This document shows positions 15,909 to 30,234 of a stretch of DNA of 64,000 bases, piece after piece (positions within the stretch are counted from its first letter, which is position 1; every line of letters starts with the position of its first letter). The translations under genes were made by a program, and so were the position numbers. The notes under the pieces were generated by a model. That model was not told where the DNA came from. It was given only the letters and a program-made list of their open reading frames with translations, and searched no databases. The stretch is from Burkholderia vietnamiensis LMG 10929 (GTDB lineage Bacteria; Pseudomonadota; Gammaproteobacteria; Burkholderiales; Burkholderiaceae): contig NZ_CP009631.1 in NCBI RefSeq assembly GCF_000959445.1, forward strand, positions 2,666,001 to 2,730,000, in the 5' to 3' direction.

Positions 15909-17021
15909 TCACGAAGAAGTTCCCGATCCGAATGAATCGACCAATGTCTGTCCATTGACCAACCCAAGCTTCACAAAGCACTGTAGGAACTGGTCAGATT
16001 TATTCAAATTAACAAAATTCATTCGAATCACGTCGTTCAAGCCATTGCCCAAGCCCGTGGCGATTGCAGAATGCCGCCCATACAATACGCTTGACAGCCC
16101 GAACGCATAGGCGAGCCTCGCATCGTCACGCGTCTTCTCTTCGTCTTTCCAGTCCATCAATGCATCCGCAATACGCTCGAACTGCTGCAGCGATTTCTCT
16201 ATCGATCCGACGGTTGAGAATTCCGACTTCCCCAATCGTACCGGCCTACCGATGTGATAACCCTGTACCCATTGCGCCCCAGACAACACGGCCGTGCGCA
16301 GCCCGGCAATGCCTTCTATGCCCTCTACCACCACCTGCTTTGCATGGCATCGGGCGCGGGCCACCAACTTCTTGAACCGATTGCATTGCGTCTGGTCACC
16401 GCAATCGGCCGGTAACATTCGACCGGCGATCTTGACGATGTCGAGTTGTGCGATGTGCGTGCTATTCTCCAAACTAAATCCATCGCCAAAATCGTCCACA
16501 GCAATGGCACATCCGCTAAGACGCAGGCGTTCGACGAACATACGCCCTGACACTGACGACAGTTGCGTGGTTTCGGTGATCTCAACGACCAGACGACAAG
16601 CAATATCTGGCCTATTTTCAAGTATCAGGAAGATTGATTCCCACCACTGGAAATTATTTGCACTTTGCGCAGAAATATTGATGCCTAAGCGTAGATCGAC
16701 ATTGGAATCCATTAAATCGATCGCCATGCTGACGATATATCGATCAACGAATCGCATCAATTCAAGCCGCTCCAGACTGGGTATGAACTCTGACGGATAT
16801 ACGATCGGAAGTCCGTCCGCGTCGACGATTCTCACCAAGCATTCGTGATATAGCACCGCTGCATCGTCCCGCACGCTCACAATCGGCTGAGCCCAAAGCA
16901 TCACCCTGTCTTGAGCGATCGCCGCCAACACCGTGCCTGCGAGCCCAAGGTCAGAATCCGCATGACGCCGCATATCTTGGGCTAATCGACGTTGCATGAG
17001 CGCCTTTACGCATTGGATCAT
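15909..17021 (-). CDS. EAL-domain cyclic-di-GMP phosphodiesterase
   Basis: Predicted enzyme of 370 residues hydrolysing c-di-GMP. The EAL motif is E-C-L (LYHECLVRI). Other active-site elements are kept: N of GINISAQS, E of EITET, the acidic pair in DDFGDGFS (D replaces the usual T), K of LDIVKIAG, E of VVEGIE and Q of VQGYHIG, so activity is plausible. No sensory domain is fused; about 110 residues of unassigned sequence follow the EAL fold. GGAGGG precedes the ATG. It is the last gene of the fimbrial regulatory side, comparable with phosphodiesterases next to mrk and cup fimbrial genes that tune pilus expression. Confidence 0.86.
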   Translation of the reverse strand: MIQCVKALMQRRLAQDMRRHADSDLGLAGTVLAAIAQDRVMLWAQPIVSVRDDAAVLYHECLVRIVDADGLPIVYPSEFIPSLERLELMRFVDRYIVSMAIDLMDSNVDLRLGINISAQSANNFQWWESIFLILENRPDIACRLVVEITETTQLSSVSGRMFVERLRLSGCAIAVDDFGDGFSLENSTHIAQLDIVKIAGRMLPADCGDQTQCNRFKKLVARARCHAKQVVVEGIEGIAGLRTAVLSGAQWVQGYHIGRPVRLGKSEFSTVGSIEKSLQQFERIADALMDWKDEEKTRDDARLAYAFGLSSVLYGRHSAIATGLGNGLNDVIRMNFVNLNKSDQFLQCFVKLGLVNGQTLVDSFGSGTSS

Positions 17022-17340: not shown

Positions 17341-18045
17341 TCAAGGCGCATTCACTTCCACATCGCCCGCGCTTCGAAAATTCAGCTGCTCATTCGGATT
17401 ATGCGTAGCCAATCCATTCAATATGAACGAAATGAACTCTATATCGTTTGACACCCCGAGCTTGCGCATCGCGCTTCGCTTGTGCGAGCTGACTGTCTGC
17501 TTACTGCGCTTCAGGAGGAAAGAAATTTCAGTGACGGTATTGCCCGCCACGAATAGGCTCATTACCTCAGCTTCTTTTGGAGACAGGTCGGCAATCGTAT
17601 TGAGCCGGCTCGTATAAATACTCTCGGCAATCGATCTGATGGTCGGCGAATTATATGTCCCACCCGCAAAGGCCGCATGAATTGCAGTGATGACATGGCC
17701 GATTGCGTCGGCCTTACTGACCACAGAAAGATTTTTCCGGGACAGAAGAGTGTGTATCACGGCTGCATTCTTTAATGTCGTGAGAACGACAATACCAACG
17801 TTCGGATATTCTCGTTGGAGATATTCGAAGAGCCAGGGTCCGCCACAGTATTTGTCCGTGTACATTGTGTACTCGCAGATTACAACGTCGCACGGCGTGC
17901 GCTGCAGCATTTCAATCAGATCGACCGGACTTTGGCAGGCGCCGATGAGATCTATCTGACCAGCGTTTTTGAGAATATTTTGTAATCCGATCAGAACAGA
18001 AGGATGATCGTCGGTAATTGCAACGCGGATGGAGAAATAGTTCAT
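17341..18045 (-). CDS. atypical NarL/LuxR-type response regulator (Asp to Glu at phospho-site)
   Basis: Regulator of 234 residues: receiver domain (1-125) and LuxR-type HTH (LSPKEAEVMSLFVAG, then ITEISFLLKRSKQTVSSHKR). The receiver keeps the acidic pair D12-D13, the switch Thr in VVLTT and the Lys in VVSKAD. The phospho-acceptor position is E58 (CDVVICEYTMY) where the paralogue at 29563-30234 has D61 (CDVVVSDYSMP). The GAG codon is unambiguous. Glu can mimic a phospho-Asp, so the protein may be constitutively active or controlled otherwise. It sits between the adhesin gene and the EAL gene and probably controls the fimbrial operon. Confidence 0.86.
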   Translation of the reverse strand: MNYFSIRVAITDDHPSVLIGLQNILKNAGQIDLIGACQSPVDLIEMLQRTPCDVVICEYTMYTDKYCGGPWLFEYLQREYPNVGIVVLTTLKNAAVIHTLLSRKNLSVVSKADAIGHVITAIHAAFAGGTYNSPTIRSIAESIYTSRLNTIADLSPKEAEVMSLFVAGNTVTEISFLLKRSKQTVSSHKRSAMRKLGVSNDIEFISFILNGLATHNPNEQLNFRSAGDVEVNAP

Positions 18046-18852
18046 GTGTTCATGCCTTGCTATTTATGTGGGTTCGTCGTGCCTGGTCGCCTCCTTTCGT
18101 GCCGACGCAGAGGTGTATTACGCTTTAGCTACCATACCCACGAGCTTTCGCTTTGCGCCTTGGGAGAGTTCAAACCCGGAACCCTTTCCCGCGCCGCCAA
18201 TTTGACAGTCAGTTTACATATTGCTTTTCCATGTGAATATCGTACATGTCAGCTATTTGATGTGCTTTCGATCGTATTTGTACGAAAATGAAGTGCAAGA
18301 CCCGTATGCGCCAGCGCTGGTAGTACAGGTGACGAACGATGGCTGCCGGGAATGCACGGTGTCGAACAGGTTAGTCATCAGGACAACGATCTTGCCGGTG
18401 GAGGCCACGTGGCGGACCAGCAGAGGCGCTTCGATAGGTCGCGGTTCGGGGTTTCGAGAAAGTGGACCAAGTGCTACCCCTGACGGTTGCAGCTTGCAAC
18501 CTGACGCGGTTGAGATCGCTGACCGCGTTGCGCCCGCATAGAGCCTGAGGCCCCAGAGTGGGCACCGGAAAGCCCACGACGTTGATCCATTCGCATTGGA
18601 ATCGACCGAGCAAGCCGAAAGCGACCGCTTTGCGGTGATCGTCGTGAACGGCAGAATGGAAAATACGTCAGGACGGACGGTAATTGAATGGCCTGCTAGA
18701 GCAAGCCAATTCTGAATTGACTCGTTATTCGAATAGACGATCTATGAGCAACAAACATTCGCCCCGAATTCGTTCGAACCGGGGCCTTGATCTAGCATCA
18801 GCTTGCTCGACAGGTATCACGAAGGTCGCGCATGACAGGTCGCACACGAGAT
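18046..18852. other. 807-bp non-coding region between adhesin and response regulator
   Basis: No frame here has recognisable homology or a good start on either strand. The part next to 18045 is AT-rich (TTTGATGTGCTTTCGATCG around 18250) and probably holds the response-regulator promoter. The segment 18300-18700 is GC-richer and may be an old insertion remnant that I cannot name. Confidence 0.4.
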
Positions 18853-19866
18853 TTATTGATAGCTCATCGTGAACGTCGCAACTCCATTTGCCGTTCCCGC
18901 TTTCACGCTCCCGGCTGTCTGCACGTAACGAGCCCACAGCGGTATGACCAGCCCGGACCCACCTTGCTGCACTAGCCCGCCGAACCATTGATTGGTGTTT
19001 CCCTCCGCAGAAGAGTCAGGGCCATATCCGAGCACTTCGTCATCCTTCAGAATCTCAATACGCACTCCGGCGGCCGTAGAGCCCTTCGAAAGCGACAGCA
19101 TCTTCCCCGTATTCGTGGGAGTCGTTGCGTCTCTCAGCGTGACATACGCCGCGATCGCGGTTCCCTGGGCGCCGCCCGAACAGGACAGACGGATCTCGAA
19201 GGGTTTGGATGGTGAGGTTGAACCCACACCGGTGAATGTAGTCGCGGCCATTGTCTGCCCCATCGCTACCTTGATGCTCTTCGTAGTGACCGCGCAGGTT
19301 GGGACCATGGGTACCACACTAACTGGAGTGGCGAAGCTAAATTCGACCATCGACGGACCAGACTTGGAGGTCGCCGCAATGCGAGCGTAAAGATCTCTCA
19401 TTAAACCACCCGCGGTTATGTTCCCGGTTTTAATTAATTGAATCGTTGGATTAATTTCTCTACTCCAAAAACTTTTCCCCACAAGTCCATTTGAATATGG
19501 CAAAGTTTTATTTCCAAAAATAATTCGCATTCCAACATTCGGCACAGTTGTCGGGTAGATATTGTCTGCTCCGGGGGTACCGACACCCACATACCAAGCT
19601 TCAGCTTGCGGGCTGCAGACCGTTTGGGGCCCAAACTGCCCCCCCCCCGAATTTGTGATCGTTGCAGTGGGCTTCCCTTCATATATTACCCCGCCGATTG
19701 GAATATCGGCTGGATTGAAGGGCGGTGGATTGAAGCCTGTGGTGGAATAGGTATAGTAAGTTAGTGAATTGGTTATAGTCGAAGCGGGATTGCACTGGGC
19801 AGCAGCCATCGCATGAATCGGCAACGCCGACGCCAGAATAAGTGATATATATTTCAATGTTTTCAT
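18853..19866 (-). CDS. two-domain fimbrial tip adhesin (chaperone-usher pilus)
   Basis: Secreted adhesin of 337 residues, MrkD/FimH-like in layout. A signal peptide (LISLILASALPIHAMAAA-like) is followed by an N-terminal receptor-binding domain with Tyr/Pro-rich loops (YYTYSTTGFNPPPFNPADIP). From about residue 200 comes a pilin domain (PTCAVTTKSIKVAMG, a second Cys in RLSCSGG, C-terminal FTMSYQ beta-zipper strand). The frame extends to 20016, but the signal peptide fixes the start at 19866. Codons 73-76 contain ten consecutive G: loss of one shifts the frame to a stop by 19434, and gain of one stops after about 12 codons. Expression is therefore probably phase variable. Last structural gene after pilin, chaperone and usher. 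Confidence 0.86.
   Translation of the reverse strand: MKTLKYISLILASALPIHAMAAAQCNPASTITNSLTYYTYSTTGFNPPPFNPADIPIGGVIYEGKPTATITNSGGGQFGPQTVCSPQAEAWYVGVGTPGADNIYPTTVPNVGMRIIFGNKTLPYSNGLVGKSFWSREINPTIQLIKTGNITAGGLMRDLYARIAATSKSGPSMVEFSFATPVSVVPMVPTCAVTTKSIKVAMGQTMAATTFTGVGSTSPSKPFEIRLSCSGGAQGTAIAAYVTLRDATTPTNTGKMLSLSKGSTAAGVRIEILKDDEVLGYGPDSSAEGNTNQWFGGLVQQGGSGLVIPLWARYVQTAGSVKAGTANGVATFTMSYQ
19639..19648 (-). repeat. G10 homopolymer tract inside adhesin gene
   Basis: Ten uninterrupted C on the plus strand (G in the coding sense), encoding the end of S73 and G74-G76. At length ten the gene is in frame. A tract of this length in GC-rich DNA is rare and is a typical slipped-strand mispairing site. 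Confidence 0.9.
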
Positions 19867-20067
19867 CGGAATATTTTTTCCAAAAAAAGAGTTTGGATCA
19901 TGCCCTGGGCCGATTGTGCGTATCCACCGATAGTACTCGATGTCACATCCAAACATGTGATCGCGACCAGCGTGTTGAGTAGATCGCCTATAGAGATAGG
20001 CCTGCTGACGCTCCATTCACGATATCCCTGTATCGACACGCCACTGCATCCCGTGCCGGCATGCCGA

Positions 20068-22557
20068 TCAGCGCCCATCCATTTGGCAGACCATCGCCAC
20101 ACGCTCGTACGCAACCGACTTCTTCCGTTCCGGCAACGCATAGCTGCCTTCGCACGAACCCTCGCTCCAGCGAATCGACATGCGCCCCTGCTCCTTGATG
20201 CCGAACACGAGTACGCGTGATGCATCGTCGACCATGCCGAGTACCTTGCCGCTCTCGTCGTAGGCCGTCGCGCCGAACGGTACCTTGCCGCCATTCGCAG
20301 TCGTCACGTCGAACTGGACCCGGCGGCCCATCTCCGCTGAGAACGTCGCCTTCACGATCGCGCCGCGCGTTGGCACCACCGACTTCGAGTTGTCGGTCAG
20401 GTCGGTGTCGAAACCGAGGCTCTCGGTGTCGACGCTGAGCCAGTTGTAGCGATACGGCTGCACATACGGCAGGATCGCGTAGCCGCTGCGATCGGTGCTA
20501 ATGCTCGATGACGACGAGAACCGCGCACCGCGCACACCCGGCACTTCGGCGATCGCGAACGTCTCGCCAACCGTCTGGCCCAGCGTCACGCCACCGCTGT
20601 GCGCGACGACGGAACCTGCGGCGCCGACGTTCATGTGCTTGCCCTGACCGGACTGGTTGTAGTTCGTCGTCAGTTTGGCCAGTGGTGTATCCCAGCCGAG
20701 GCCCACACCGCCCGACCCTCCGGAATTCTTGCGGTAGTCGCCTTGGACCGAGTAGTTGACCGTGTTCGCTTCATTCAGGAAGCCGTTCACGCCGACTTGC
20801 GTACTGACGTCGCCGTTCGTCGATGCCACGGTGTTCGCGAACATGCGATGCGAACGGGCGCCGCCGCCGAGCGGAATGCTGATCGACGCGGTGAACTGCG
20901 TGTCGGAGCGGCCGAACGGACCCGAATCCCGTGCGTGTGCGACCGCGACGCTGTAGCTGAGATTTTTCAGCGCGCCGCTGTAGCCAAGCTGGATGTTGCG
21001 GCTCGCCCCGCCCTGGCTCCAGTAGCTCGTCTCGCCAATACTCGCGTACACCGACCCGTCCGTGCCCAGCGACTGGTTGATGTTCAGGTCGACGCGACTC
21101 TTCTGGCGGTTATACCCGCTCCCCCACTGGCGATCGAGGTCGTCGACGTGCTGGCTGAATGTACGATAGCCATCGGTCGAATAGCGATAGCCGACCATCG
21201 TGAAGGTGGTTTCCGTCGCTTTCAGCGTTTTCGAATAGAGGAACCGAAAACTTTGCCCGCTGGACTTGCGGCCCGTCGCGTTCGACTGGCTGTGCGTAAT
21301 GTCGAACGACACGCCGCCCAGCGGCGAGTTGTATCCGACCCCGAGCGCAATGGCCGCGTACCGCTCGGCGCCGATGAAACCGCCATAGCCGGTCAGGTTG
21401 TCGGACACGCCGTAGACCAGCGAGCCCTGCGCGAACATCGGCCGCGACTGGCTATAGCCGCGATACTGGCCGGCCGAGAACGAATAGCGCATCGTGCCGC
21501 TACGAATCATGACCGGCAGATACGAATAGGACTGCCGGTACGTGCGCACGCTGCCGTCGGATTCGATGATCCGGATCTCGAGGTCGCCGTTCGAGCCGCT
21601 CGGGTAAATGTCCCGGAATTCGAACGCCCCGGGTGTGACGGACGTCGAATAGATCACATAGCCGTTCTGGCGAACTTCCACCACCGCGTTGCTCTGAGCG
21701 ATGCCGCGCACGACCGGCGCATACCCGACCTCGTTGTCCGGCAACATGCCTGTATCGGAACTGATCTGCGCGCCGAGAAAGCGTACACTGTCGAAGATCT
21801 CACCGGACGAGTACACCTCGCCCGCGGACAGCCGCCCCTTGATGTGCTGCAGGTCGCGTTCCACATAGGTGCGGTTCGCCGCCAAATCGGACGGACTGCC
21901 GCGACGCCACGACAGCGCAGATTCGTTGCGCAACCGCCACGCGCCGATGTTGAGGCCGTTGCGCAGCCCGATATACGCGTAGTCGCTGCGATATCCGGAA
22001 TCCGTATCGTGACTAAAGTTCGCCTGATAGTTCGAATAGGCGGCGGTCATGCCCTGGTCCCAAAGCGACGGATCGACGTAGCCGCGCGTTTGCGTTGGCG
22101 CATAGGCCTGCGGCACGCTGACATCGAGCGTCAGTGTGCCGACGTCGAAACTCGTTGATCCGCCGTCGGCAAGTGTGCCGAGATCGACCGGCGAGTCGTC
22201 CGCCAGCCCTGCTGCCAGTTTGTGCTCGCGCTCGAGGCGATTCACGTCGACGCCCAGCGCCTTCAACAAGCCGAACGTGATCACCGGGCGAACCTCACCC
22301 GACGCATCGGCCTTGAACAGGACCGACTCACGTCTTGCACGTCGCTGATTCAACGACACATCCACATCGTAGATGCCCGGCGCAACCGAACTACCCTTTT
22401 CGAAATACGAAAGCTCGACGGGACCGTCCCCCTTCTTGAGGAACAACTCGTTGAACTCTGCTGCTTGCCCAGCCACGGGGGTCATAGCGACACCGAGCGC
22501 CATCAGATAGGACGCACGCCGACAAGCCTCTGCGATTTTCTTGACAGTTGTGTTCAT
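20068..22557 (-). CDS. fimbrial outer-membrane usher protein
   Basis: PapC/FimD-family usher of 829 residues, the outer-membrane pore that assembles and secretes the pilus. A signal peptide (SYLMALGVAMTPVAGQAA) is followed by the N-terminal chaperone-binding domain (FNELFLKKGDGPVELSYFEKG), the beta-barrel with plug, and C-terminal domains (SVDTESLGFDTDLTDNSK, then VPFGATAYDE). Length is normal. It lies after the chaperone gene and before the adhesin on the same strand. The 201 bases to the adhesin start show no gene. Confidence 0.95.
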   Translation of the reverse strand: MNTTVKKIAEACRRASYLMALGVAMTPVAGQAAEFNELFLKKGDGPVELSYFEKGSSVAPGIYDVDVSLNQRRARRESVLFKADASGEVRPVITFGLLKALGVDVNRLEREHKLAAGLADDSPVDLGTLADGGSTSFDVGTLTLDVSVPQAYAPTQTRGYVDPSLWDQGMTAAYSNYQANFSHDTDSGYRSDYAYIGLRNGLNIGAWRLRNESALSWRRGSPSDLAANRTYVERDLQHIKGRLSAGEVYSSGEIFDSVRFLGAQISSDTGMLPDNEVGYAPVVRGIAQSNAVVEVRQNGYVIYSTSVTPGAFEFRDIYPSGSNGDLEIRIIESDGSVRTYRQSYSYLPVMIRSGTMRYSFSAGQYRGYSQSRPMFAQGSLVYGVSDNLTGYGGFIGAERYAAIALGVGYNSPLGGVSFDITHSQSNATGRKSSGQSFRFLYSKTLKATETTFTMVGYRYSTDGYRTFSQHVDDLDRQWGSGYNRQKSRVDLNINQSLGTDGSVYASIGETSYWSQGGASRNIQLGYSGALKNLSYSVAVAHARDSGPFGRSDTQFTASISIPLGGGARSHRMFANTVASTNGDVSTQVGVNGFLNEANTVNYSVQGDYRKNSGGSGGVGLGWDTPLAKLTTNYNQSGQGKHMNVGAAGSVVAHSGGVTLGQTVGETFAIAEVPGVRGARFSSSSSISTDRSGYAILPYVQPYRYNWLSVDTESLGFDTDLTDNSKSVVPTRGAIVKATFSAEMGRRVQFDVTTANGGKVPFGATAYDESGKVLGMVDDASRVLVFGIKEQGRMSIRWSEGSCEGSYALPERKKSVAYERVAMVCQMDGR

Positions 22558-22676
22558 GACGTGGATTGCGAGCTCTTTCTCCTCGGTGGAGGCATCAGAA
22601 ATGCGCGCCCTTTTTTAATTAGTAAAACTGATTAATGTGCCGCGATAGACACGGCCATCCTCATGTCACGCGGGAG

Positions 22677-23396
22677 CTATTTCGTCACGTCTGACTGAGT
22701 GTCGACTGTCGCGCCGAAATCGTTGATCGACCCAAACTCGACCTTCGCATTCGCCGGCAGCGCCTTTCCAACGAGATTCTTGACGGCCAGGCGTTTCGAC
22801 GATTTCGGTTCGATCATTTCAGCGACGACAGGATACGTGTTTGCGCCCGCCTTGAGATTCACGTGACCCAGCGACACGAAGTAAGGGGAGTCGTTGACGA
22901 CTTCCAGCGCCGGCTTGCCGCTACCCTCGCTCCAACGCCACTTCAGCTGGCCCGGCGCATCTGAGGGTTCTCCGGACAAATCGGCAGGCCGGTAAAAGAG
23001 CTTGATCCGCTGCCGCACCGCGATCTGCAACGAGTTGTCGCCCTTCGCCTTTTGCGGAATTTCCTGCACGCTTAGCCAGAACACCGATTCACGATCGGTA
23101 GCGAGCCCCTCACCCGCATAAAAGATGCGCAGGATCTGCTGCTTGTCGCCGCCGAGGCGGCTCAACGACGGCGTGATTGCAAAGGGCAGATCGCCTTTCG
23201 TGCCATTCGGCAACTCGATCCAGGACTGGATCATCACGTCGTCCGGCGACTGATTCTTGACGACGACTGACGCTTCCTTGCTCTTCGCTGGATAAACGAT
23301 GCGCGTGCCAGACAACGAAACGCCGGCATGCGACGAAATTGAGAGGAACAGTATCGAGCCGGCCGCGACCAGCCCTGCAATGAGCGATTTCTTCAT
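22677..23396 (-). CDS. periplasmic fimbrial chaperone
   Basis: PapD-like chaperone of 239 residues that donates a strand to pilin subunits. A signal peptide (MKKSLIAGLVAAGSILFLS) is followed by two Ig-like domains. The N-terminal domain has the subunit-binding pattern (SGTRIVYPAKSKEASVVVKN, R and K anchor residues). The conserved WLSVQEIP and QIAVRQRIKLFYRP motifs are present. Second gene of the fimbrial operon, 68 bases after the pilin. Confidence 0.95.
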   Translation of the reverse strand: MKKSLIAGLVAAGSILFLSISSHAGVSLSGTRIVYPAKSKEASVVVKNQSPDDVMIQSWIELPNGTKGDLPFAITPSLSRLGGDKQQILRIFYAGEGLATDRESVFWLSVQEIPQKAKGDNSLQIAVRQRIKLFYRPADLSGEPSDAPGQLKWRWSEGSGKPALEVVNDSPYFVSLGHVNLKAGANTYPVVAEMIEPKSSKRLAVKNLVGKALPANAKVEFGSINDFGATVDTQSDVTK

Positions 23397-23464
23397 GGCG
23401 GATTTAACTCTGGAGGCGGCGGTGAAACGGCACGCCGTGCCGTTTCACCGCTCGATTGGGGGAT

Positions 23465-24061
23465 TTACTCGTACGACAGCGTAAACGGCAGCGTGCCGTT
23501 CGCGGTACCAGCGCCGATCTTGTCGCCGTTCGCGACGTAGCCAGCACGCATGTTCAGAGCTGCGGCGTAGGTCGGCGCTTCAGCCGTGCCGCCCTTGACC
23601 AGCGGTGCATCGATCGTCTCGTTTGCCGCCAGGTTCAGCAGCTTGTTATTGCCATCATAGATGCCGATGCCGACGCCCGTGGCCGTGCCCGAGATCTGCA
23701 GCAGGTTGTTGTTCTTGCCGTCGAGGCCCGAACCTGACTTCGCGTCGAACTTCACCTTAACGAGCGTCAAATCGGTCGCCGTGTTGCCGCAGTCGAGGCT
23801 CAGATCGATCGACGTGCCGCCTGCGATGCCGTAACCAGCGGTGCCGCCGATCGAATCCGCACTGACCGTGCCGAGGTTGACCGCGATGTCCTGGTTGCCC
23901 TTCTCGCCAGTCACGTTCGTGCCAGCACCGCCGGTGATCGAGCACGACGCCGCGGTGATGTTGCCCGTGAAGTTGATCGTACCGTCGGCTGCCATGGCCG
24001 AACCTGCTGCGAACATACCTGCGACTGCTGCGAATGCGATGAATTTCTTGTTGAGAGCCAC
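23465..24061 (-). CDS. major fimbrial subunit (pilin)
   Basis: Type 1-like pilin of 198 residues. The frame opens at 24121, but GGAG six bases before a GTG at 24061 gives the family-typical start (V/MALNKKFIAFAAVAGMF signal peptide, cleavage after AMA). The mature protein begins ADGTINFTGNI, has the conserved Cys pair (ASCSI and LDCGN) and the C-terminal beta-zipper strand ending FTLSYE. First gene of the operon, with a near-consensus promoter upstream. It forms the pilus shaft by donor-strand exchange. Confidence 0.92.
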   Translation of the reverse strand: MALNKKFIAFAAVAGMFAAGSAMAADGTINFTGNITAASCSITGGAGTNVTGEKGNQDIAVNLGTVSADSIGGTAGYGIAGGTSIDLSLDCGNTATDLTLVKVKFDAKSGSGLDGKNNNLLQISGTATGVGIGIYDGNNKLLNLAANETIDAPLVKGGTAEAPTYAAALNMRAGYVANGDKIGAGTANGTLPFTLSYE

Positions 24062-24164
24062 GCTTTTCTCCAATGAAAGGTGATTGACAAACTCCTTACA
24101 GAGCGAGGTCAATGATGCCAATTCACCGATGCTTTGTATCTAGTTCGTGAACGATATTTGGCCC

Positions 24165-24193
24165 TCTATATATAGGACGAGTACGAATATCAA
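24165..24193 (-). promoter_or_regulatory. sigma-70 type promoter of the fimbrial operon
   Basis: On the minus strand a -35 TTGATA (24193-24188), a 17-base spacer and a -10 TATAGA (24170-24165) lie about 95 bases before the pilin GTG. Both boxes and spacing are near consensus, in a strongly AT-rich patch, which predicts a strong promoter. The long leader leaves room for regulator binding. Confidence 0.65.
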
Positions 24194-24352
24194 TTTTTCG
24201 CCGCTTTAATCCATTGAATGTTAAATGGATTTTTCAATCTCCCGGGGTCAAACTGCATCAAGGAACGGTGCTATGCGCGTACGCTTTTACTGGCGAAGGA
24301 CAGCAGGCGTGACAAGCGATCGCTGCACCGCCCAGGCCGATCGCCATCGCCG

Positions 24353-24862
24353 GGCGATGCGCGGGGGCTCGTCGTGCTCGAGGGCGGCCGCGTCGTGGCG
24401 CTCGATCGCGCCGCTCGAGAGCGCGAACTCGTGCTTGGGGTTGCTTATGCGCTCCTGCAGTTCACACCGAGCGTCGTCGACGCCGACGAAGCCGTGGTGG
24501 TACTCGACGTGACGGCGGGCCTGCGCCTCTTTCACGGCATCCGCGCGCTCGCGCGCGTGCCTCTCATCGTGGCGCCGGACGCCCGGCGCTATGCGAACTG
24601 GTTTGAGGATCTCGGCTGCGAAACGCTCGCCGATCTGCAGCGCTTGCCGCGCGCTGGGTTGAAGAAACGATGCGGCACGCAACTGCTCGACTGGCTCGAC
24701 CAGGTCGCCGGCACCGCGCCGGCCGCCTACGACTGGCTAGAAACGCCGCCGTCGTTCGACACGCGCGTCGAACTGATGGACCGCGTCGAGCACGCCGAGG
24801 CGCTGCTGTTCGTCGCGCGCCGGCTGATCCTGCAGCTGACCGGCTGGCTCACCGCAACCTGA
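24353..24862 (+). pseudogene. imuB-type Y-family polymerase-like gene fragment
   Basis: The plus-strand frame matches internal parts of ImuB (DinB-like mutasome subunit): DARGLVVLEGGRVVALDRAA, ALLQFTPSVV with VVVLDVTAGLRLFHGIRALA, then VAPDARRYANWFEDLGCETL with RLPRAGLKKRCG, then [20 protein letters not shown]. Two internal blocks are missing yet the frame stays open. The 3' half is cut at about 24861 by an IS701-type fragment, and no imuA or dnaE2 is nearby. A decayed remnant. Confidence 0.75.
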
Positions 24863-25304: not shown

Positions 25305-26218
25305 GAGACGGTTTCATAAAGACTGATCGGCCCGCCGAAGGGTATTCCAGCAGATCAGACAGCAACCGAGTTTGAGGAACGCGCTGTGAATGTCTGCACG
25401 GCGCTCGAAACGAATACGGAGACGACGGAAGTGATGCAGCCAGGCATGCGTGCGTTCGACGACCCAGCGATATTTGCCAAGGCCGCTGCCATGTTCGGTA
25501 CGGCGCTTGGCGATCACTGGCTCGATACCGCGATCGCGCAACGCGCGCCGATGTCGCTCGGAGTCGTAACCGCGATCCGCGTAGACCACACGCGGCCGCT
25601 GCAATGGGTGGCCACGCAATCCGCGGATCGGCGGAATCGCGTCGATCAGCGGCAGCAATTGCGTGACGTCGTTGACGTTCGCGCCGGTCAGGATCGCGGC
25701 GAGCGGCGTACCGTTGGCGTCGGTGACGATGTGGTGCTTGGAACCGGGTCGCGCGCGATCGGTGGGGTTTGGCCCAGTTTTTGGCCTGCCCCAACGGCGC
25801 GAATCGATGATGAATCGACGGCGGCTCGTGAGAAGTCGATCTGGTCCGCTGCGCGCAGCTTTGCGAGCAGTAGCTCGTGCAAGCGATCCCAGACACCGGC
25901 TGCTTGCCAATCGCGCAGCCGGCGCCAACATGTCACGCCCGAGCCGCATCCCATTTCGGCCGGCAGGTCGCGCCAGCGTAGTCCGGTCTTGAGAACGAAC
26001 AGGATGCCGGTCAGCGCGGCGCGATTCGAAACAGGCAGGCGGCCCGGGTTCTTCTCGCGCCGCGGCTTGGGTGGCGGCAGTAACGGCTCGATCAGTGCCC
26101 ACAATTCATCGTCGATGATCGGCTTGGCCATCTCCTCAGTCTCGGTTGTTCCGATGCCTGAGGTTAACAGCTCACCGCGAAAGTTAACAGCCCCACGGGG
26201 CCTTTTTGAAACCGTCTC
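25305..26218 (-). mobile_element. IS5-family (IS427-like) insertion sequence, 914 bp
   Basis: Perfect 12-base terminal inverted repeats GAGACGGTTTCA (25305-25316) and TGAAACCGTCTC (26207-26218) are flanked by a TAA direct repeat (25302-25304 and 26219-26221), the short duplication expected for this group. It lies 16 bases beyond the stop of the histidine kinase gene and within or beside the IS701 fragment. It appears recent and intact. Confidence 0.9.
25314..26131 (-). CDS. IS5-family transposase, two frames joined by -1 frameshift
   Basis: The first frame starts at the ATG at 26131 (GAGGAG directly upstream) and runs [20 protein letters not shown] to [17 protein letters not shown]. The second frame continues [23 protein letters not shown] and [17 protein letters not shown] to a stop at 25314. 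The frames meet at a run of five A near 25790, where a -1 slip gives the full DDE transposase of about 272 residues, as in IS427-type elements. No mutation other than the programmed shift is needed. Confidence 0.85.
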
Positions 26219-26234
26219 TAAGATTAGACGTGCT

Positions 26235-29200
26235 CTATTCCCCGTTTCCTGAGCCGTCCCCAAGCTGGCCGACTTCTTCGCTTCGCGCTGTTGCAGCCAG
26301 TGCGGAGGATACTCGTCTCTTCACGTCCGACAGCGTCTCCTCGATATCACGGGAAGCGGTGTTCGAATCACCGGCGAGCAACGCCTCAAGTTTCGAACAT
26401 GCGTCGACGACTTCTCCGACATGAATCATCGAGAATGCCCCCTTAATAGAATGAATCTGCGCTGATATCGTCGCCCGGTCACCTTGCGCCATCGCTGCCT
26501 CCGCCGACTGAAGCGATTCAGCGGTGAGCCGCTCCAATGTGGTTCGCGATTCATCCGATAGCACCGAAGCCGCATGCCCGGGCACCGTTTCGATCGCCGC
26601 CGCTGCCCGAGGATCAGCCGCTAGCATCAGATAGCGCCGCACTGCCGCATCGATCGAGGCAAGCGACATCGGCTTGAGTAGGATGCCGGATATGCCTGCC
26701 TCGCGAAACCGCTGTGAATCGGTAGCGGTGACGTCAGCCGTGATTGCAATGATCGGTGTCCGCGCGCCTTGACTATGTAGGCAAGCAGCAAGTGTATAGC
26801 CATCCATGACGGGCATCGCAAGGTCAGTTAGCACAAGATCGTAGTGCCGCTCATTGAAGTGTCGCAGCGCGATCAGACCGTTCTCAACGATGTCACTCGT
26901 ATAGCCCAGTGCAGCGAGCTGCTCGCGAATCAGTTCGCGATTCACTTCGTGGTCTTCCACCACGAGCACGTGGATGCCGCGCGTATCTGGCTCTACCTCC
27001 GTCGCTTGCGACCCAACAGCGTGTACCGGCATCGCTCCGATGTACGGGAGAATCGGCAGCATCACCGTAAAGACACTGCCATGGCCCACCTCGCTGGCCA
27101 CGTCGATCGAGCCGCCCATGCCCTCAGCCATGCGTTTGCACAGTGCCAGCCCCAGCCCCGTTCCGCCAAATCGACGCGTAACCGACACGTCAACCTGCTC
27201 GAATGCATCGAAGATGCGTGCCAGACGGTCCGACGGAATGCCGATCCCGGTGTCGGTCACGCGGATCACGAGCCGCGATGCTGCTCCACCCTCGCCCATG
27301 CCCACGTCGATTGAGACGTGCCCGCGATCCGTGAACTTAATAGCGTTACCCAGCAGGTTTGCGAAGATCTGACGGATTCGCCCAGGATCGCCGATGACGT
27401 ACCGCGGAAGCGCCGGATCGATCGAGGCTTTCAATTCCAGCTGCTTGCGCTGCGCGAGCGGCATGAACATCATGATCGCCTCGCGAATGAGTTCCGCCGC
27501 ATCGAACCGGATCGATTCGAAACTCATCTCGCCTGCCTCGATTTTCGAAAAGTCAAGGATGTCGTCGAGTATCCCCAGCAAGGCCCGCGACGATGACGTA
27601 ATGATCCGCACCCGCGCAGCGACCGGCGCAGCCTGCGGCAGCCGCTCAAGCAGCTCAAGATGGCCAAGAATCCCATTCAGCGGCGTCCGGATTTCATGAC
27701 TCATCGAGGCAACAAATGCACTCTTAGCTGCGTTTGCACTGTCCGCTGCCTGCTTGGCGGCAGCAAGCTGACGTGCCAGTTGTCTGTCAGACGTGACATC
27801 CGTCAGCGCCGCCACGACCACCGGTTGCCCTTGGTAACGAGACGGGGCCAATTTCGCGGCAACATCGATCATGGTGCCGTCTTCGGTGGGCAGGTTCAGC
27901 TCGAAATCGAATGCCGGTGATTCACCGCGGCGCGACGCTTCAAATGCGGCAGGTGCATGATAGTTGAGTACGTCGCCGATCCCGGCGCCAACCGCCGTCG
28001 CAATGCGCCTTTCGAGTGCCTGCATATGTGCGCTTTCCAGCAACACTCCATGACTGTTCGCGTTGACAAGCGCCAGTCCGACCGGTGCGGTTTCGATCAG
28101 AGTCCGACTCAGATGCTCGCTTTCGAATATGCGCTGCGAGCGCTCGAACAGTGGCGCGAGAATCCTGCGATTGAACAGAAAGACAAAGACCCACAACAGG
28201 ACGATGGCGAGGCCGGTGACAATGGCAGGTGCCGTAATATCCCGCGCAACGCGAGCGGCGACGATTTGAATTGGCAACGAATAGACCAGCGTCCATCCGG
28301 TCGCGCCAAGCGGCGCACACATCAATAGGTTGCCGTCGCCGTATGTCTCGGCAGCGTCGCCCGGCGCCGGAGCCGATTTCCGGCAACCGCCCACAACGTG
28401 CCTGATCTCCCCCCCCCCGAATCGACCGGATACCGTGCTAGTCACCGGCTCAGTGCGCTCGTCGAAGACCCAATACGCACCGGGAAATGACCCTGGCACT
28501 AATCGATCGAGTAGTCGCTCCGGGCTGAATTCGCCCGCTACGACTGCGGACGGTCGGCGGTTCACCTTAACGAGCGCCAGGACACGGAACTTCGATCTCC
28601 CGCTCAGAGGATCGATCGCTGGAGGCAGCCAGCGGAGTGACCGGGCGCCGCCTTGCTGCGCAATAGCCCAGGGGGCAAGATTCGAGAGTCCCGTTCCGTA
28701 GTAGCTCAACAGACGGAGCGGATCCCGTATGGTGCGCTGCGCCTGTGGACTTAATACATCGGGCAGCGGATTGATACCAACCATGGAAGCGCTCGGCGTG
28801 ACGATATAGCCGCCCAGTCCCCATCGAAGGTCGACGGCGTCGTTCATCGTCTTCACCAGATTACCGCTCGAGCCAGCAGTGTTCTTCGTGACGGCAAGGA
28901 AATGTTCCTCCGATTCACCGTCCGCTCGCTGTATGCTGGAAAGACGGAGAACAAGTGCACCGCGCGCACCCGGGCCTGCGGGGAACACAATCCGACCGCC
29001 TTGTGCCTCGAACGTCCTCACATCGTTCTCGTCTCCCGAGCCGGCGCTCTCCCACGCGGCCTCGATTCCCGTCGCGACAATGCGAACCCGGGTTTCACTC
29101 GCCCGGGCGATGTCCATGACGCGCCCCAGATTACGCTGGAACGCTTTCCGCTCATCGTTAAGCTCCTCTCGGGCGAACCCGATGAGCGCCAGCACGAATG

Positions 29201-29372
29201 CGAACAAGATGAAGAGCGTCAGCGCAGCCGCGCCCAAGAACAGAACGTTCCGATGATGGACGCGAAAGCGGGCGAGAAAACTGGCAGGTGATGATGGACG
29301 CATGGCTGGCAAATATCGATTACGCTTGATGCTAGGTGAGTTTGCATGTCGCAGTCCTCGGCGTGCTGTCAC
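26235..29372 (-). CDS. hybrid sensor histidine kinase (HisKA-HATPase-REC-HPt)
   Basis: Unorthodox sensor of up to 1045 residues. In order: TM1 (about 43-65, LFLGAAALTLFILFAFVLAL), a large periplasmic sensor, TM2 (about 385-410), PAS-like region, HisKA (SHEIRTPLNG), HATPase (NLLGNAIKF, DTGIGI, GGTGLGL), receiver with Asp in LVLTDLAMPVMDG, and C-terminal HPt (IHSIKGAFS). Layout is as in BvgS/RcsC-type phosphorelays. The start may be the GTG at 29372 or the ATG at 29303; neither has a strong ribosome binding site. A G10 run at 28409-28418 (residues 319-321) lies in the periplasmic part: one base gained or lost truncates the protein before the kinase core. Divergent from the response regulator at 29563, its likely partner. 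Confidence 0.92.
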   Translation of the reverse strand: MTARRGLRHANSPSIKRNRYLPAMRPSSPASFLARFRVHHRNVLFLGAAALTLFILFAFVLALIGFAREELNDERKAFQRNLGRVMDIARASETRVRIVATGIEAAWESAGSGDENDVRTFEAQGGRIVFPAGPGARGALVLRLSSIQRADGESEEHFLAVTKNTAGSSGNLVKTMNDAVDLRWGLGGYIVTPSASMVGINPLPDVLSPQAQRTIRDPLRLLSYYGTGLSNLAPWAIAQQGGARSLRWLPPAIDPLSGRSKFRVLALVKVNRRPSAVVAGEFSPERLLDRLVPGSFPGAYWVFDERTEPVTSTVSGRFGGGEIRHVVGGCRKSAPAPGDAAETYGDGNLLMCAPLGATGWTLVYSLPIQIVAARVARDITAPAIVTGLAIVLLWVFVFLFNRRILAPLFERSQRIFESEHLSRTLIETAPVGLALVNANSHGVLLESAHMQALERRIATAVGAGIGDVLNYHAPAAFEASRRGESPAFDFELNLPTEDGTMIDVAAKLAPSRYQGQPVVVAALTDVTSDRQLARQLAAAKQAADSANAAKSAFVASMSHEIRTPLNGILGHLELLERLPQAAPVAARVRIITSSSRALLGILDDILDFSKIEAGEMSFESIRFDAAELIREAIMMFMPLAQRKQLELKASIDPALPRYVIGDPGRIRQIFANLLGNAIKFTDRGHVSIDVGMGEGGAASRLVIRVTDTGIGIPSDRLARIFDAFEQVDVSVTRRFGGTGLGLALCKRMAEGMGGSIDVASEVGHGSVFTVMLPILPYIGAMPVHAVGSQATEVEPDTRGIHVLVVEDHEVNRELIREQLAALGYTSDIVENGLIALRHFNERHYDLVLTDLAMPVMDGYTLAACLHSQGARTPIIAITADVTATDSQRFREAGISGILLKPMSLASIDAAVRRYLMLAADPRAAAAIETVPGHAASVLSDESRTTLERLTAESLQSAEAAMAQGDRATISAQIHSIKGAFSMIHVGEVVDACSKLEALLAGDSNTASRDIEETLSDVKRRVSSALAATARSEEVGQLGDGSGNGE
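28409..28418 (-). repeat. G10 homopolymer tract inside histidine kinase gene
   Basis: Ten uninterrupted C on the plus strand encode GRFGGGE in the kinase sense frame. With nine G the frame meets TGA after about 28 codons; with eleven it runs to a stop near 28109. Either loses all catalytic domains. This is the only other ten-base G/C run I noticed in the window besides the one in the adhesin gene. Confidence 0.9.
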
Positions 29373-29562: not shown

Positions 29563-30234
29563 GTGAGGGCTAGAAACGAGTTTTCGATTAAGGTCGTAAT
29601 CGCGGACGATCATCCTACTATATTGAGCGGTCTCGTTTATACGCTGGAGCACGTCTCTACGATCGAAATCGTTGCGACCTGCCGGAACGCGCCAGAACTG
29701 ATTGCCACGCTCGAGAAGCAGCCATGCGACGTGGTGGTTTCCGACTACTCAATGCCCAGTGGCGAGAGCGTCGATGGACTAGCGCTCTTCGAACACTTGC
29801 GGCGCCATTTCCAGAATGTTGGCATCGTCGCACTGACGATGATGGATAGTCCGGCAGTCATACGTGCGCTTATGTCAGTCGGGATTAACTCCATCCTCAG
29901 CAAATCGGATGTCACTGGCCACATCATCACGGCTATCCATAGCAGCTATGCGGGCGGCTCATACTTGTCCCCGACCATCGAGAAGGTTGTGACGGGCAAC
30001 GAAGCCGTGAACATCGGGCAGCTGCTGTCTCCACGCGAACTCGAAGTTGCGCGGCTATTTGCATCAGGTCTATCGATTACCGAGATCGCTAAGCGGCTGA
30101 ATCGCAGCAAGCAAACTATCAGCACGCAGAAGGCGATGGCAATGGAAAAACTCGGCGTTGGGGGCGATGCTGAACTTATCCGGTACGCACTCGAAAGCGG
30201 ATTGGTTACCTCTCCGCCCGCCCCGAAAAGTTAG
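29563..30234 (+). CDS. NarL/LuxR-type response regulator, partner of the hybrid kinase
   Basis: Response regulator of 223 residues starting at GTG (GGGGAAA upstream). The receiver has D15-D16, phospho-acceptor D61 (CDVVVSDYSMP), the switch Thr (IVALTMMD) and Lys (SILSKSD). A GerE-type HTH follows (LSPRELEVARLFASG-like segment, then ITEIAKRLNRSKQTISTQK). It is clearly paralogous to the regulator at 17341-18045, which has Glu at the equivalent site. Divergent next to the kinase, it should take phosphate from the kinase HPt domain and act on the fimbrial promoter or other targets. Confidence 0.93.
   Translation: MRARNEFSIKVVIADDHPTILSGLVYTLEHVSTIEIVATCRNAPELIATLEKQPCDVVVSDYSMPSGESVDGLALFEHLRRHFQNVGIVALTMMDSPAVIRALMSVGINSILSKSDVTGHIITAIHSSYAGGSYLSPTIEKVVTGNEAVNIGQLLSPRELEVARLFASGLSITEIAKRLNRSKQTISTQKAMAMEKLGVGGDAELIRYALESGLVTSPPAPKS

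What the first reader, a model, noticed from the sequence alone, without database searches (positions are those of the whole stretch)
28409..28418. A second G10 tract, in the hybrid histidine kinase of the same locus (BvgS-like switch)
The only other ten-base G/C run I noticed in 64 kb lies in the periplasmic-sensor coding part of the kinase 9 kb away. Gain or loss of one base stops translation before HisKA, HATPase, receiver and HPt. Bordetella bvgS is known to switch off by frameshift in a homopolymer tract, and Bordetella fim genes by poly-C changes. Here sensor and adhesin of one fimbrial locus both appear switchable, giving four combinatorial states. I know of no description of such a dual switch in Burkholderia.
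Basis: partly seen in the sequence, partly recalled or inferred. Interest (0 to 1): 0.88.

Follow-up and report, generated by a model that had tools for sequence, protein, structure and literature searches.

The report
Double poly-G on/off fimbrial locus
A fimbrial gene cluster in a Burkholderia genome carries two ten-G runs, one in its sensor kinase and one in its tip adhesin, and in the one close relative found both runs are one base shorter and both genes are out of frame, so both look like slippage-driven on/off switches.

Summary
The tract is real: C10 at 28409-28418 (+), G10 in the coding strand of a hybrid kinase. With the adhesin tract (19639-19648) it forms the only two G/C runs of ten or more in the 6.93 Mb genome. 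The one near-identical locus among 65 genus genomes (G064; 99.6% over 23,045 aligned columns) has G9 at BOTH tracts, putting kinase and adhesin out of frame; two of the four indels in that alignment are these. The kinase is ON with 10 G; 9 or 11 G ends it before HisKA. This supports slipped-strand ON/OFF switching of both genes; reversal within a clone is not shown. 'BvgS-like' holds only by analogy: no Venus-flytrap sensor was found, the kinase and regulators are nearest RcsC/RcsB, and this kinase family often lies beside chaperone-usher operons (25 of 64 hits), as in Pseudomonas Rcs/Pvr-cupD. The kinase tract was in no other relative examined; the adhesin of the related B. territorii locus has its own G11. 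That the kinase controls the fimbriae, and in which direction, is inferred. Phase-variable sensors and adhesins are known elsewhere; two coding tracts in one fimbrial locus is a new variant.

The parts
28409..28418 (-). G10 tract (C10 on +) in the kinase coding sequence: codons TTC GGG GGG GGG GAG; residues 319-321 are Gly-Gly-Gly
   Evidence: G9 in G064
19639..19648 (-). G10 tract in the adhesin coding sequence from residue 73: TCG GGG GGG GGG CAG
   Evidence: G9 in G064
26235..29303 (-). hybrid kinase, periplasmic sensor - HisKA - HATPase - receiver - HPt (open frame reaches 29372; Met at 29303 is the start shared with relatives)
18853..19866 (-). two-domain tip adhesin: signal peptide (by eye), receptor-binding region with sub-threshold MrkD-like match, C-terminal Fimbrial domain
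20068..22557 (-). outer-membrane usher
22677..23396 (-). PapD-type chaperone
23465..24121 (-). fimbrial major subunit (start codon uncertain)
17341..18045 (-). LuxR-type response regulator RR1, nearest RcsB
29563..30234 (+). LuxR-type response regulator RR2, nearest RcsB, divergent from the kinase
15909..17021 (-). EAL-domain protein; sub-threshold match to PvrR among others
25306..26219 (.). insertion-sequence copy (about 0.9 kb) between kinase and pilin, absent from G064

Best explanation
The G10 tract makes the kinase gene a contingency locus. Replication slippage adds or removes a G; only 10 G (or a multiple of three away) leaves the 1,022-aa sensor - HisKA - HATPase - receiver - HPt protein in frame, while 9 or 11 G ends translation in or just after the periplasmic part and removes the whole phosphorelay. 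The adhesin of the same locus has the same kind of tract, 10 G being in frame. The window genome is ON/ON; the near-identical locus of G064 is OFF/OFF. The kinase most likely feeds the two RcsB-like regulators and so sets transcription of the neighbouring chaperone-usher operon, so one tract would switch regulation and the other the tip adhesin. Shown: tract lengths, frames, two states in two genomes. Inferred: slippage as the cause, reversibility, the kinase-regulator-fimbria path. Open: whether kinase OFF lowers or raises fimbriae; in Pseudomonas the RcsC sensor of the comparable system acts as a phosphatase and its partner PvrS as the kinase (PMC3842833, passages).
For: Only two G/C runs of ten or more in 6.93 Mb, both here. 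Near-identical locus in G064: 82 substitutions and 4 single-base indels in 23,045 columns, two of the indels being one G less in each tract, P about 4.5e-6 for random sites. Kinase downstream of the tract: 0 differences in 26235-28408 between the two genomes, so the out-of-frame copy is not decaying. G9 gives a 349-aa stub in G064 where the window has 1,045 aa. The G064 assembly calls a G10 elsewhere and the own assembly a G9 elsewhere, so neither is simply capped at one length. The tract is in a loop without conservation: 0 of 37 aligned relatives have GGG there. Catalytic motifs are intact (motif names recalled). The kinase family lies near ushers in 25 of 64 genus hits within 20 kb, the window and G064 included, and 26 of 52 named loci show a chaperone or usher match (counted). 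B. territorii (L044/L116) has G11 in frame in its adhesin.
Against: Two genomes only; no reads, no clonal variants. If indels are taken to fall only in runs of 6 or more, two of four in these tracts is unremarkable (P 0.28): that supports slippage, not selection for switching. Both tracts differ together, so independence is unproven, and OFF/OFF could be laboratory loss or a homopolymer error at these places. No other relative's kinase has the tract, so a long-conserved switch in the kinase is not shown. Regulator targets were not tested. An insertion sequence separates kinase and pilin in the window.
Confidence: 0.62

Rival explanations
1. Only the adhesin is a selected phase-variable gene; the kinase tract is a recent chance run in a tolerant loop that slips without being selected for it.
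For: B. territorii has an adhesin tract (G11) but no kinase tract; no G/C run of 7 or more in any of 28 other genus kinase loci; three 59-63% relatives from other genera lack it too; the loop is unconserved.
Against: Both tracts are ten long, both changed by one base in G064, and these are the only two such runs in the genome. 28 other adhesin loci examined also lack a run of 7 or more inside the match, so the adhesin tract is itself rare.
Confidence: 0.2
2. Permanent inactivation or laboratory loss in G064: frameshifts on the way to pseudogenes, in an IS-rich island, not a reversible switch.
For: Both genes are out of frame together; the island carries many transposase frames and fragments.
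Against: 0 differences in the 2,174 bases of kinase after the frameshift and a 733-aa open frame there; apart from the tracts the other two indels are outside the genes named here (19879 is upstream of the adhesin start, 18072 upstream of RR1).
Confidence: 0.1
3. Sequencing or assembly error: one genome has the wrong length at both tracts.
For: Long G runs are error-prone; the sequencing methods of the two genomes are unknown here.
Against: Each assembly holds the other length elsewhere (G10 in G064 at C1:943155, G9 in G000 at C1:99120).
Confidence: 0.08

Closest known systems
Bordetella pertussis bvgS phase change (C6/C7) with poly-C tracts at fim2, fim3 and fimX (PMC1891110, passages seen)
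   Same: Homopolymer length change in the coding part of a hybrid sensor kinase stops it; fimbrial genes of the same organism also carry poly-C tracts.
   Different: There the fimbrial tracts lie in promoters (fim2, fim3) and away from bvgS; the bvgS tract is short (C6). Here both tracts are G10, in coding sequence, in one locus, and the second is in the tip adhesin. The sensor type differs: BvgS's Venus-flytrap domains are recalled; none was found here.
Pseudomonas aeruginosa PA14 PvrSR/RcsCB control of cupD on an island (PMC3842833, passages seen)
   Same: Hybrid sensor, RcsB-like regulator and EAL protein next to a chaperone-usher operon on a horizontally acquired island.
   Different: No repeat-tract switch was mentioned in the passages seen. 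All curated RcsC, RcsB and PvrR cut-offs are missed by the window proteins. Two RcsB-like regulators and one sensor here.
Helicobacter pylori SabA adhesin: phase variation plus ArsRS control (PMC2715451, passages seen)
   Same: One adhesin governed both by repeat-tract slippage and by a sensor kinase.
   Different: Outer-membrane adhesin, not a fimbria; loss of ArsS raised SabA. A tract in arsS itself was not seen in these passages (recalled only).
Campylobacter jejuni flgR and flgS phase variation (PMC3930126, passages seen)
   Same: Coding-tract slippage in both proteins of a two-component system that controls a surface appendage.
   Different: Flagella; A/T tracts in flgR; the appendage gene itself is not the second switch.
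Burkholderia thailandensis csuFABCDE/bfmSR (PMC12124856, abstract seen)
   Same: Stochastic genetic change feeding a two-component system that controls a chaperone-usher pilus in Burkholderia.
   Different: The change is a 208.6-kb duplication, not slippage, and it activates by copy number.

Membership tests
Phase-variable (contingency) gene by simple-sequence slippage | Tract longer than chance | tested here: met
   2 runs of ten in 6.93 Mb, both here; 2 of 100 window shuffles reach 2
Phase-variable (contingency) gene by simple-sequence slippage | One-base change puts the gene out of frame | tested here: met
   both genes
Phase-variable (contingency) gene by simple-sequence slippage | Tract length differs between close relatives | tested here: met
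   10/10 against 9/9, in the single close relative found
Phase-variable (contingency) gene by simple-sequence slippage | Frequent, reversible change within one clone | not testable with these tools
   no reads or clonal series
BvgS family | Tandem Venus-flytrap periplasmic domains (recalled as defining) | tested here: not met
   Pfam at E up to 10 on residues 24-410 gives only DUF1654 (0.23); best profile matches are chemoreceptor-type sensor domains, E 8.6e-6 and weaker
BvgS family | HisKA - HATPase - receiver - HPt | tested here: met
BvgS family | PAS domain before HisKA (recalled) | tested here: inconclusive
   PAS E 0.11, 12.9 bits against cut-off 22.6
Rcs/Pvr (cupD-type) fimbrial control | Sensor over the RcsC cut-off | tested here: not met
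   best family RcsC, 378 bits, cut-off 920
Rcs/Pvr (cupD-type) fimbrial control | Regulators over the RcsB cut-off | tested here: not met
   RcsB best for both, 133 and 154 bits, cut-off 235
Rcs/Pvr (cupD-type) fimbrial control | Genes adjacent to a chaperone-usher operon | tested here: met
   family-wide 25 of 64 genus hits with a listed usher within 20 kb
Rcs/Pvr (cupD-type) fimbrial control | Phosphorelay to the regulator and control of the fimbrial promoter | not testable with these tools
   needs experiment
Two-domain tip adhesin | C-terminal Fimbrial domain after an N-terminal receptor-binding domain | tested here: inconclusive
   Fimbrial met (63.3 bits); MrkD-like domain 20.4 bits against cut-off 27

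The most novel reading that the evidence does not exclude
A mobile two-bit genetic switch: one fimbrial island in which sensor kinase and tip adhesin each carry a coding G10 tract that slips independently, so a clone samples regulated fimbriae with adhesin, fimbriae without adhesin, and unregulated states, and the whole device moves between Burkholderia species and replicons.
Probability: 0.45. Interest if true: 0.72.

Novelty: new variant of a known kind. Interest (0 to 1): 0.6.

Why it matters
If the switch is real, clonal Burkholderia populations would hold fimbriated and non-fimbriated, adhesive and non-adhesive cells side by side by mutation alone, and assembled genomes would show 'pseudogenes' that are only OFF alleles. 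It would put regulator switching and adhesin switching under separate slippage clocks in one operon neighbourhood, a layout where the order and epistasis of two contingency loci can be measured directly. It would also add a repeat-tract mechanism to the causes of morphotype variation in Burkholderia; the review consulted names regulator mutations, two-component systems, genome reduction and duplication, phage integration and DNA methylation, and has no occurrence of 'homopolymer' or 'slipped' (PMC12096841, passages).

Tried and rejected
BvgS kinship: rejected on sensor type and best-matching families. Wide conservation of the kinase tract: rejected; no G/C run of 7 or more in the 28 other genus kinase loci fetched (28 of the 62 hits outside the window genome's and G064's main locus and its split copy; loci are capped), none of 8 or more inside the query's relative in the 52 named loci (runs elsewhere in L116, L136 and L155), none of 6 or more inside three 59-63% relatives. 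Adhesin tracts as a genus-wide habit: not supported; 0 of 28 other adhesin loci fetched have a run of 7 or more inside the match, five have one outside it. The B. territorii adhesin was not among those hits (too diverged) and was found by locus instead.

Plasmid collection: no match for 17341-24200. I thought of B. vietnamiensis from replicon sizes; this is recall and unverified. The third G9 run of the genome and the G10 of G064 were looked at: the first lies in a secretin gene on a small replicon, the second in or by a short open frame without a Pfam match.

Structure of the sensor: not obtained. Structure prediction answered 'busy' ten times, so no fold search was made.

Usher proximity: I gave the script 139 of the 150 usher rows listed, whose own list is cut; the 11 left out are on other contigs than the kinase hits. 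I dropped one of 65 kinase rows (second half of the split G064 kinase). The structure alignment A3 took 37 of the 52 named loci; 15 were left out by hand (short, or much like others).

Full report
Observation. C10 is at 28409-28418 on the + strand and C10 at 19639-19648; there is no other G/C run of seven or more in the window. Both read as G10 in genes on the - strand. Searching the whole genome (6,930,496 bases, 4 contigs) for ten G gives exactly these two places. Searching for nine gives five overlapping matches: two per ten-run and one more run of nine on contig C1. In shuffles of the window the mean is 0.07 matches, and 2 of 100 shuffles reach two; runs of seven alone are not clearly in excess. 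Two random sites would fall within 8.8 kb with probability about 0.0025. In 64 of 65 genus genomes some run of nine exists, with counts from 0 to several hundred, so a run of nine as such is not rare in the genus.

Genes. The kinase frame 26235-29372 has HisKA, HATPase_c, Response_reg and Hpt domains above the curated cut-offs. Relatives begin at the Met of residue 24. Downstream on the same strand come pilin, PapD-type chaperone, usher, adhesin, a LuxR-type regulator (RR1) and an EAL protein; a second LuxR-type regulator (RR2) is divergent on the other side. NCBIfam's best family for the kinase is RcsC (378 bits, cut-off 920), for both regulators RcsB (133 and 154 bits, cut-off 235); PvrR is among the EAL protein's matches (58 bits, cut-off 580). 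All are below cut-off: relatives, not members. In relatives from other genera the module kinase - RR2 - RR1 stands together, with a chaperone next to it in two of three (G112, G292).

Frames. From the start codon to the kinase tract is a whole number of codons; with ten G the frame goes on for 723 codons, with nine it would stop after 28, with eleven after 155. For the adhesin (ATG at 19866) the in-frame length is also ten: 261 codons follow; the other frames stop after 67 and 11 (the window's own letters, no base changed). So the window is ON/ON.

The decisive comparison. Of 65 genus genomes 50 have some relative of the sensor half (E <= 1e-30), but only one, G064, is near-identical: 99% and 100% in two frames that break at residues 319-324. 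Its kinase tract is G9 and its adhesin tract is G9 as well. Its kinase frame ends at 349 aa. Aligning the locus base by base (window 7067-31023 less the insertion sequence) gives 23,045 columns with 82 substitutions and four single-base indels, 99.6% identity. The indels are one G in each tract, one base in a run of six just upstream of the adhesin start (19879), and one upstream of RR1 (18072). Two of four in 20 bases has a chance of 4.5e-6 if sites are alike, 0.0038 if indels fall only in runs of four or more, 0.28 if only in runs of six or more. The last figure is the fair limit: the data show that these tracts slip, not that selection made them. In the kinase after the tract the genomes do not differ at all (0 of 2,174 bases), so the OFF copy is young or kept.

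Errors. Each assembly contains the other length elsewhere: a G10 in G064 and a G9 in the own genome. This argues against a simple cap on run length but does not replace reads.

Horizontal spread. The locus is on a 3.3-Mb contig in the window genome and a 1.2-Mb contig in G064. The rpoB region is 96.8% identical over 7.1 kb, less than this variable locus at 99.6%; beyond 7067 the match goes on at 98.8% and 98.3% with a gap. A recent exchange of an island between species is the simplest reading. GC content of the stretch 1-40 kb is mostly 0.51-0.64, against 0.65-0.71 for most 2-kb steps from 42 kb on.

How old is each switch? The kinase tract is in a loop of the sensor without conservation; 0 of 37 aligned relatives have GGG there. 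No relative examined has a tract: 28 genus loci, 52 named loci (overlapping sets), three from other genera. The adhesin tract is also rare: 0 of 28 other adhesin loci. So tip adhesins of this kind of locus gained tracts at least twice; the kinase tract is known from one island only.

Link of kinase and fimbriae. Indirect. 25 of 64 kinase hits, the window and G064 among them, have a listed usher within 20 kb (23 of 62 without them, with a cut usher list, so a lower bound); 26 of 52 named loci show a chaperone or usher match (counted). In Pseudomonas PA14 the comparable RcsC/PvrS/RcsB/PvrR set controls cupD, with PvrS as kinase and RcsC as phosphatase and relay (PMC3842833, passages), so loss of the sensor here might lower or raise fimbriae. 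In H. pylori loss of ArsS raised the phase-variable adhesin SabA (PMC2715451, passages).

What is known. bvgS C6/C7 and the fim promoter tracts in Bordetella (PMC1891110, passages), flgR and flgS in Campylobacter (PMC3930126, passages), duplication-driven bfmSR/csu in B. thailandensis (PMC12124856, abstract). A review of regulation of chaperone-usher fimbriae names promoter-spacing slippage for Haemophilus Hif (PMC9820224, passages). My searches for a Burkholderia case or a sensor-plus-adhesin coding pair listed none; they cover open-access papers only and the listings were not read through.

Verdict.

Noticed in passing
L107 (own genome, contig C1:99120-99128): The only other G/C run of nine or more in the genome lies in frame in a secretin gene (Pfam Secretin and Secretin_N_2, 565 aa), PilN-like by recall; with the two here, all three such runs are in genes for surface or secretion structures.
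   Followed up: partly
   Followed up: yes
window 19879, 13 bases upstream of the adhesin ATG: One-base difference from G064 in a run of six A (coding strand) between the likely ribosome-binding region and the start codon; it could tune translation.
   Followed up: no
window 1-31023 and G064 C2: Island shared at 98-99.6% between two species-level genomes on different replicons, although their rpoB regions are 96.8% identical.
   Followed up: partly
window 25306-26219: Insertion sequence just downstream of the kinase stop, absent from G064 at this place; matching copies occur elsewhere in G064 (L167).
   Followed up: partly
window 24218-24862: Open frame that looks like a fragment of a Y-family polymerase gene (recalled, not searched), next to transposase fragments, between kinase and pilin.
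   Followed up: no
window 19635-19648 and 28405-28418, coding strand: Both tracts are preceded by the same four bases (ATTC), perhaps by chance.
   Followed up: no
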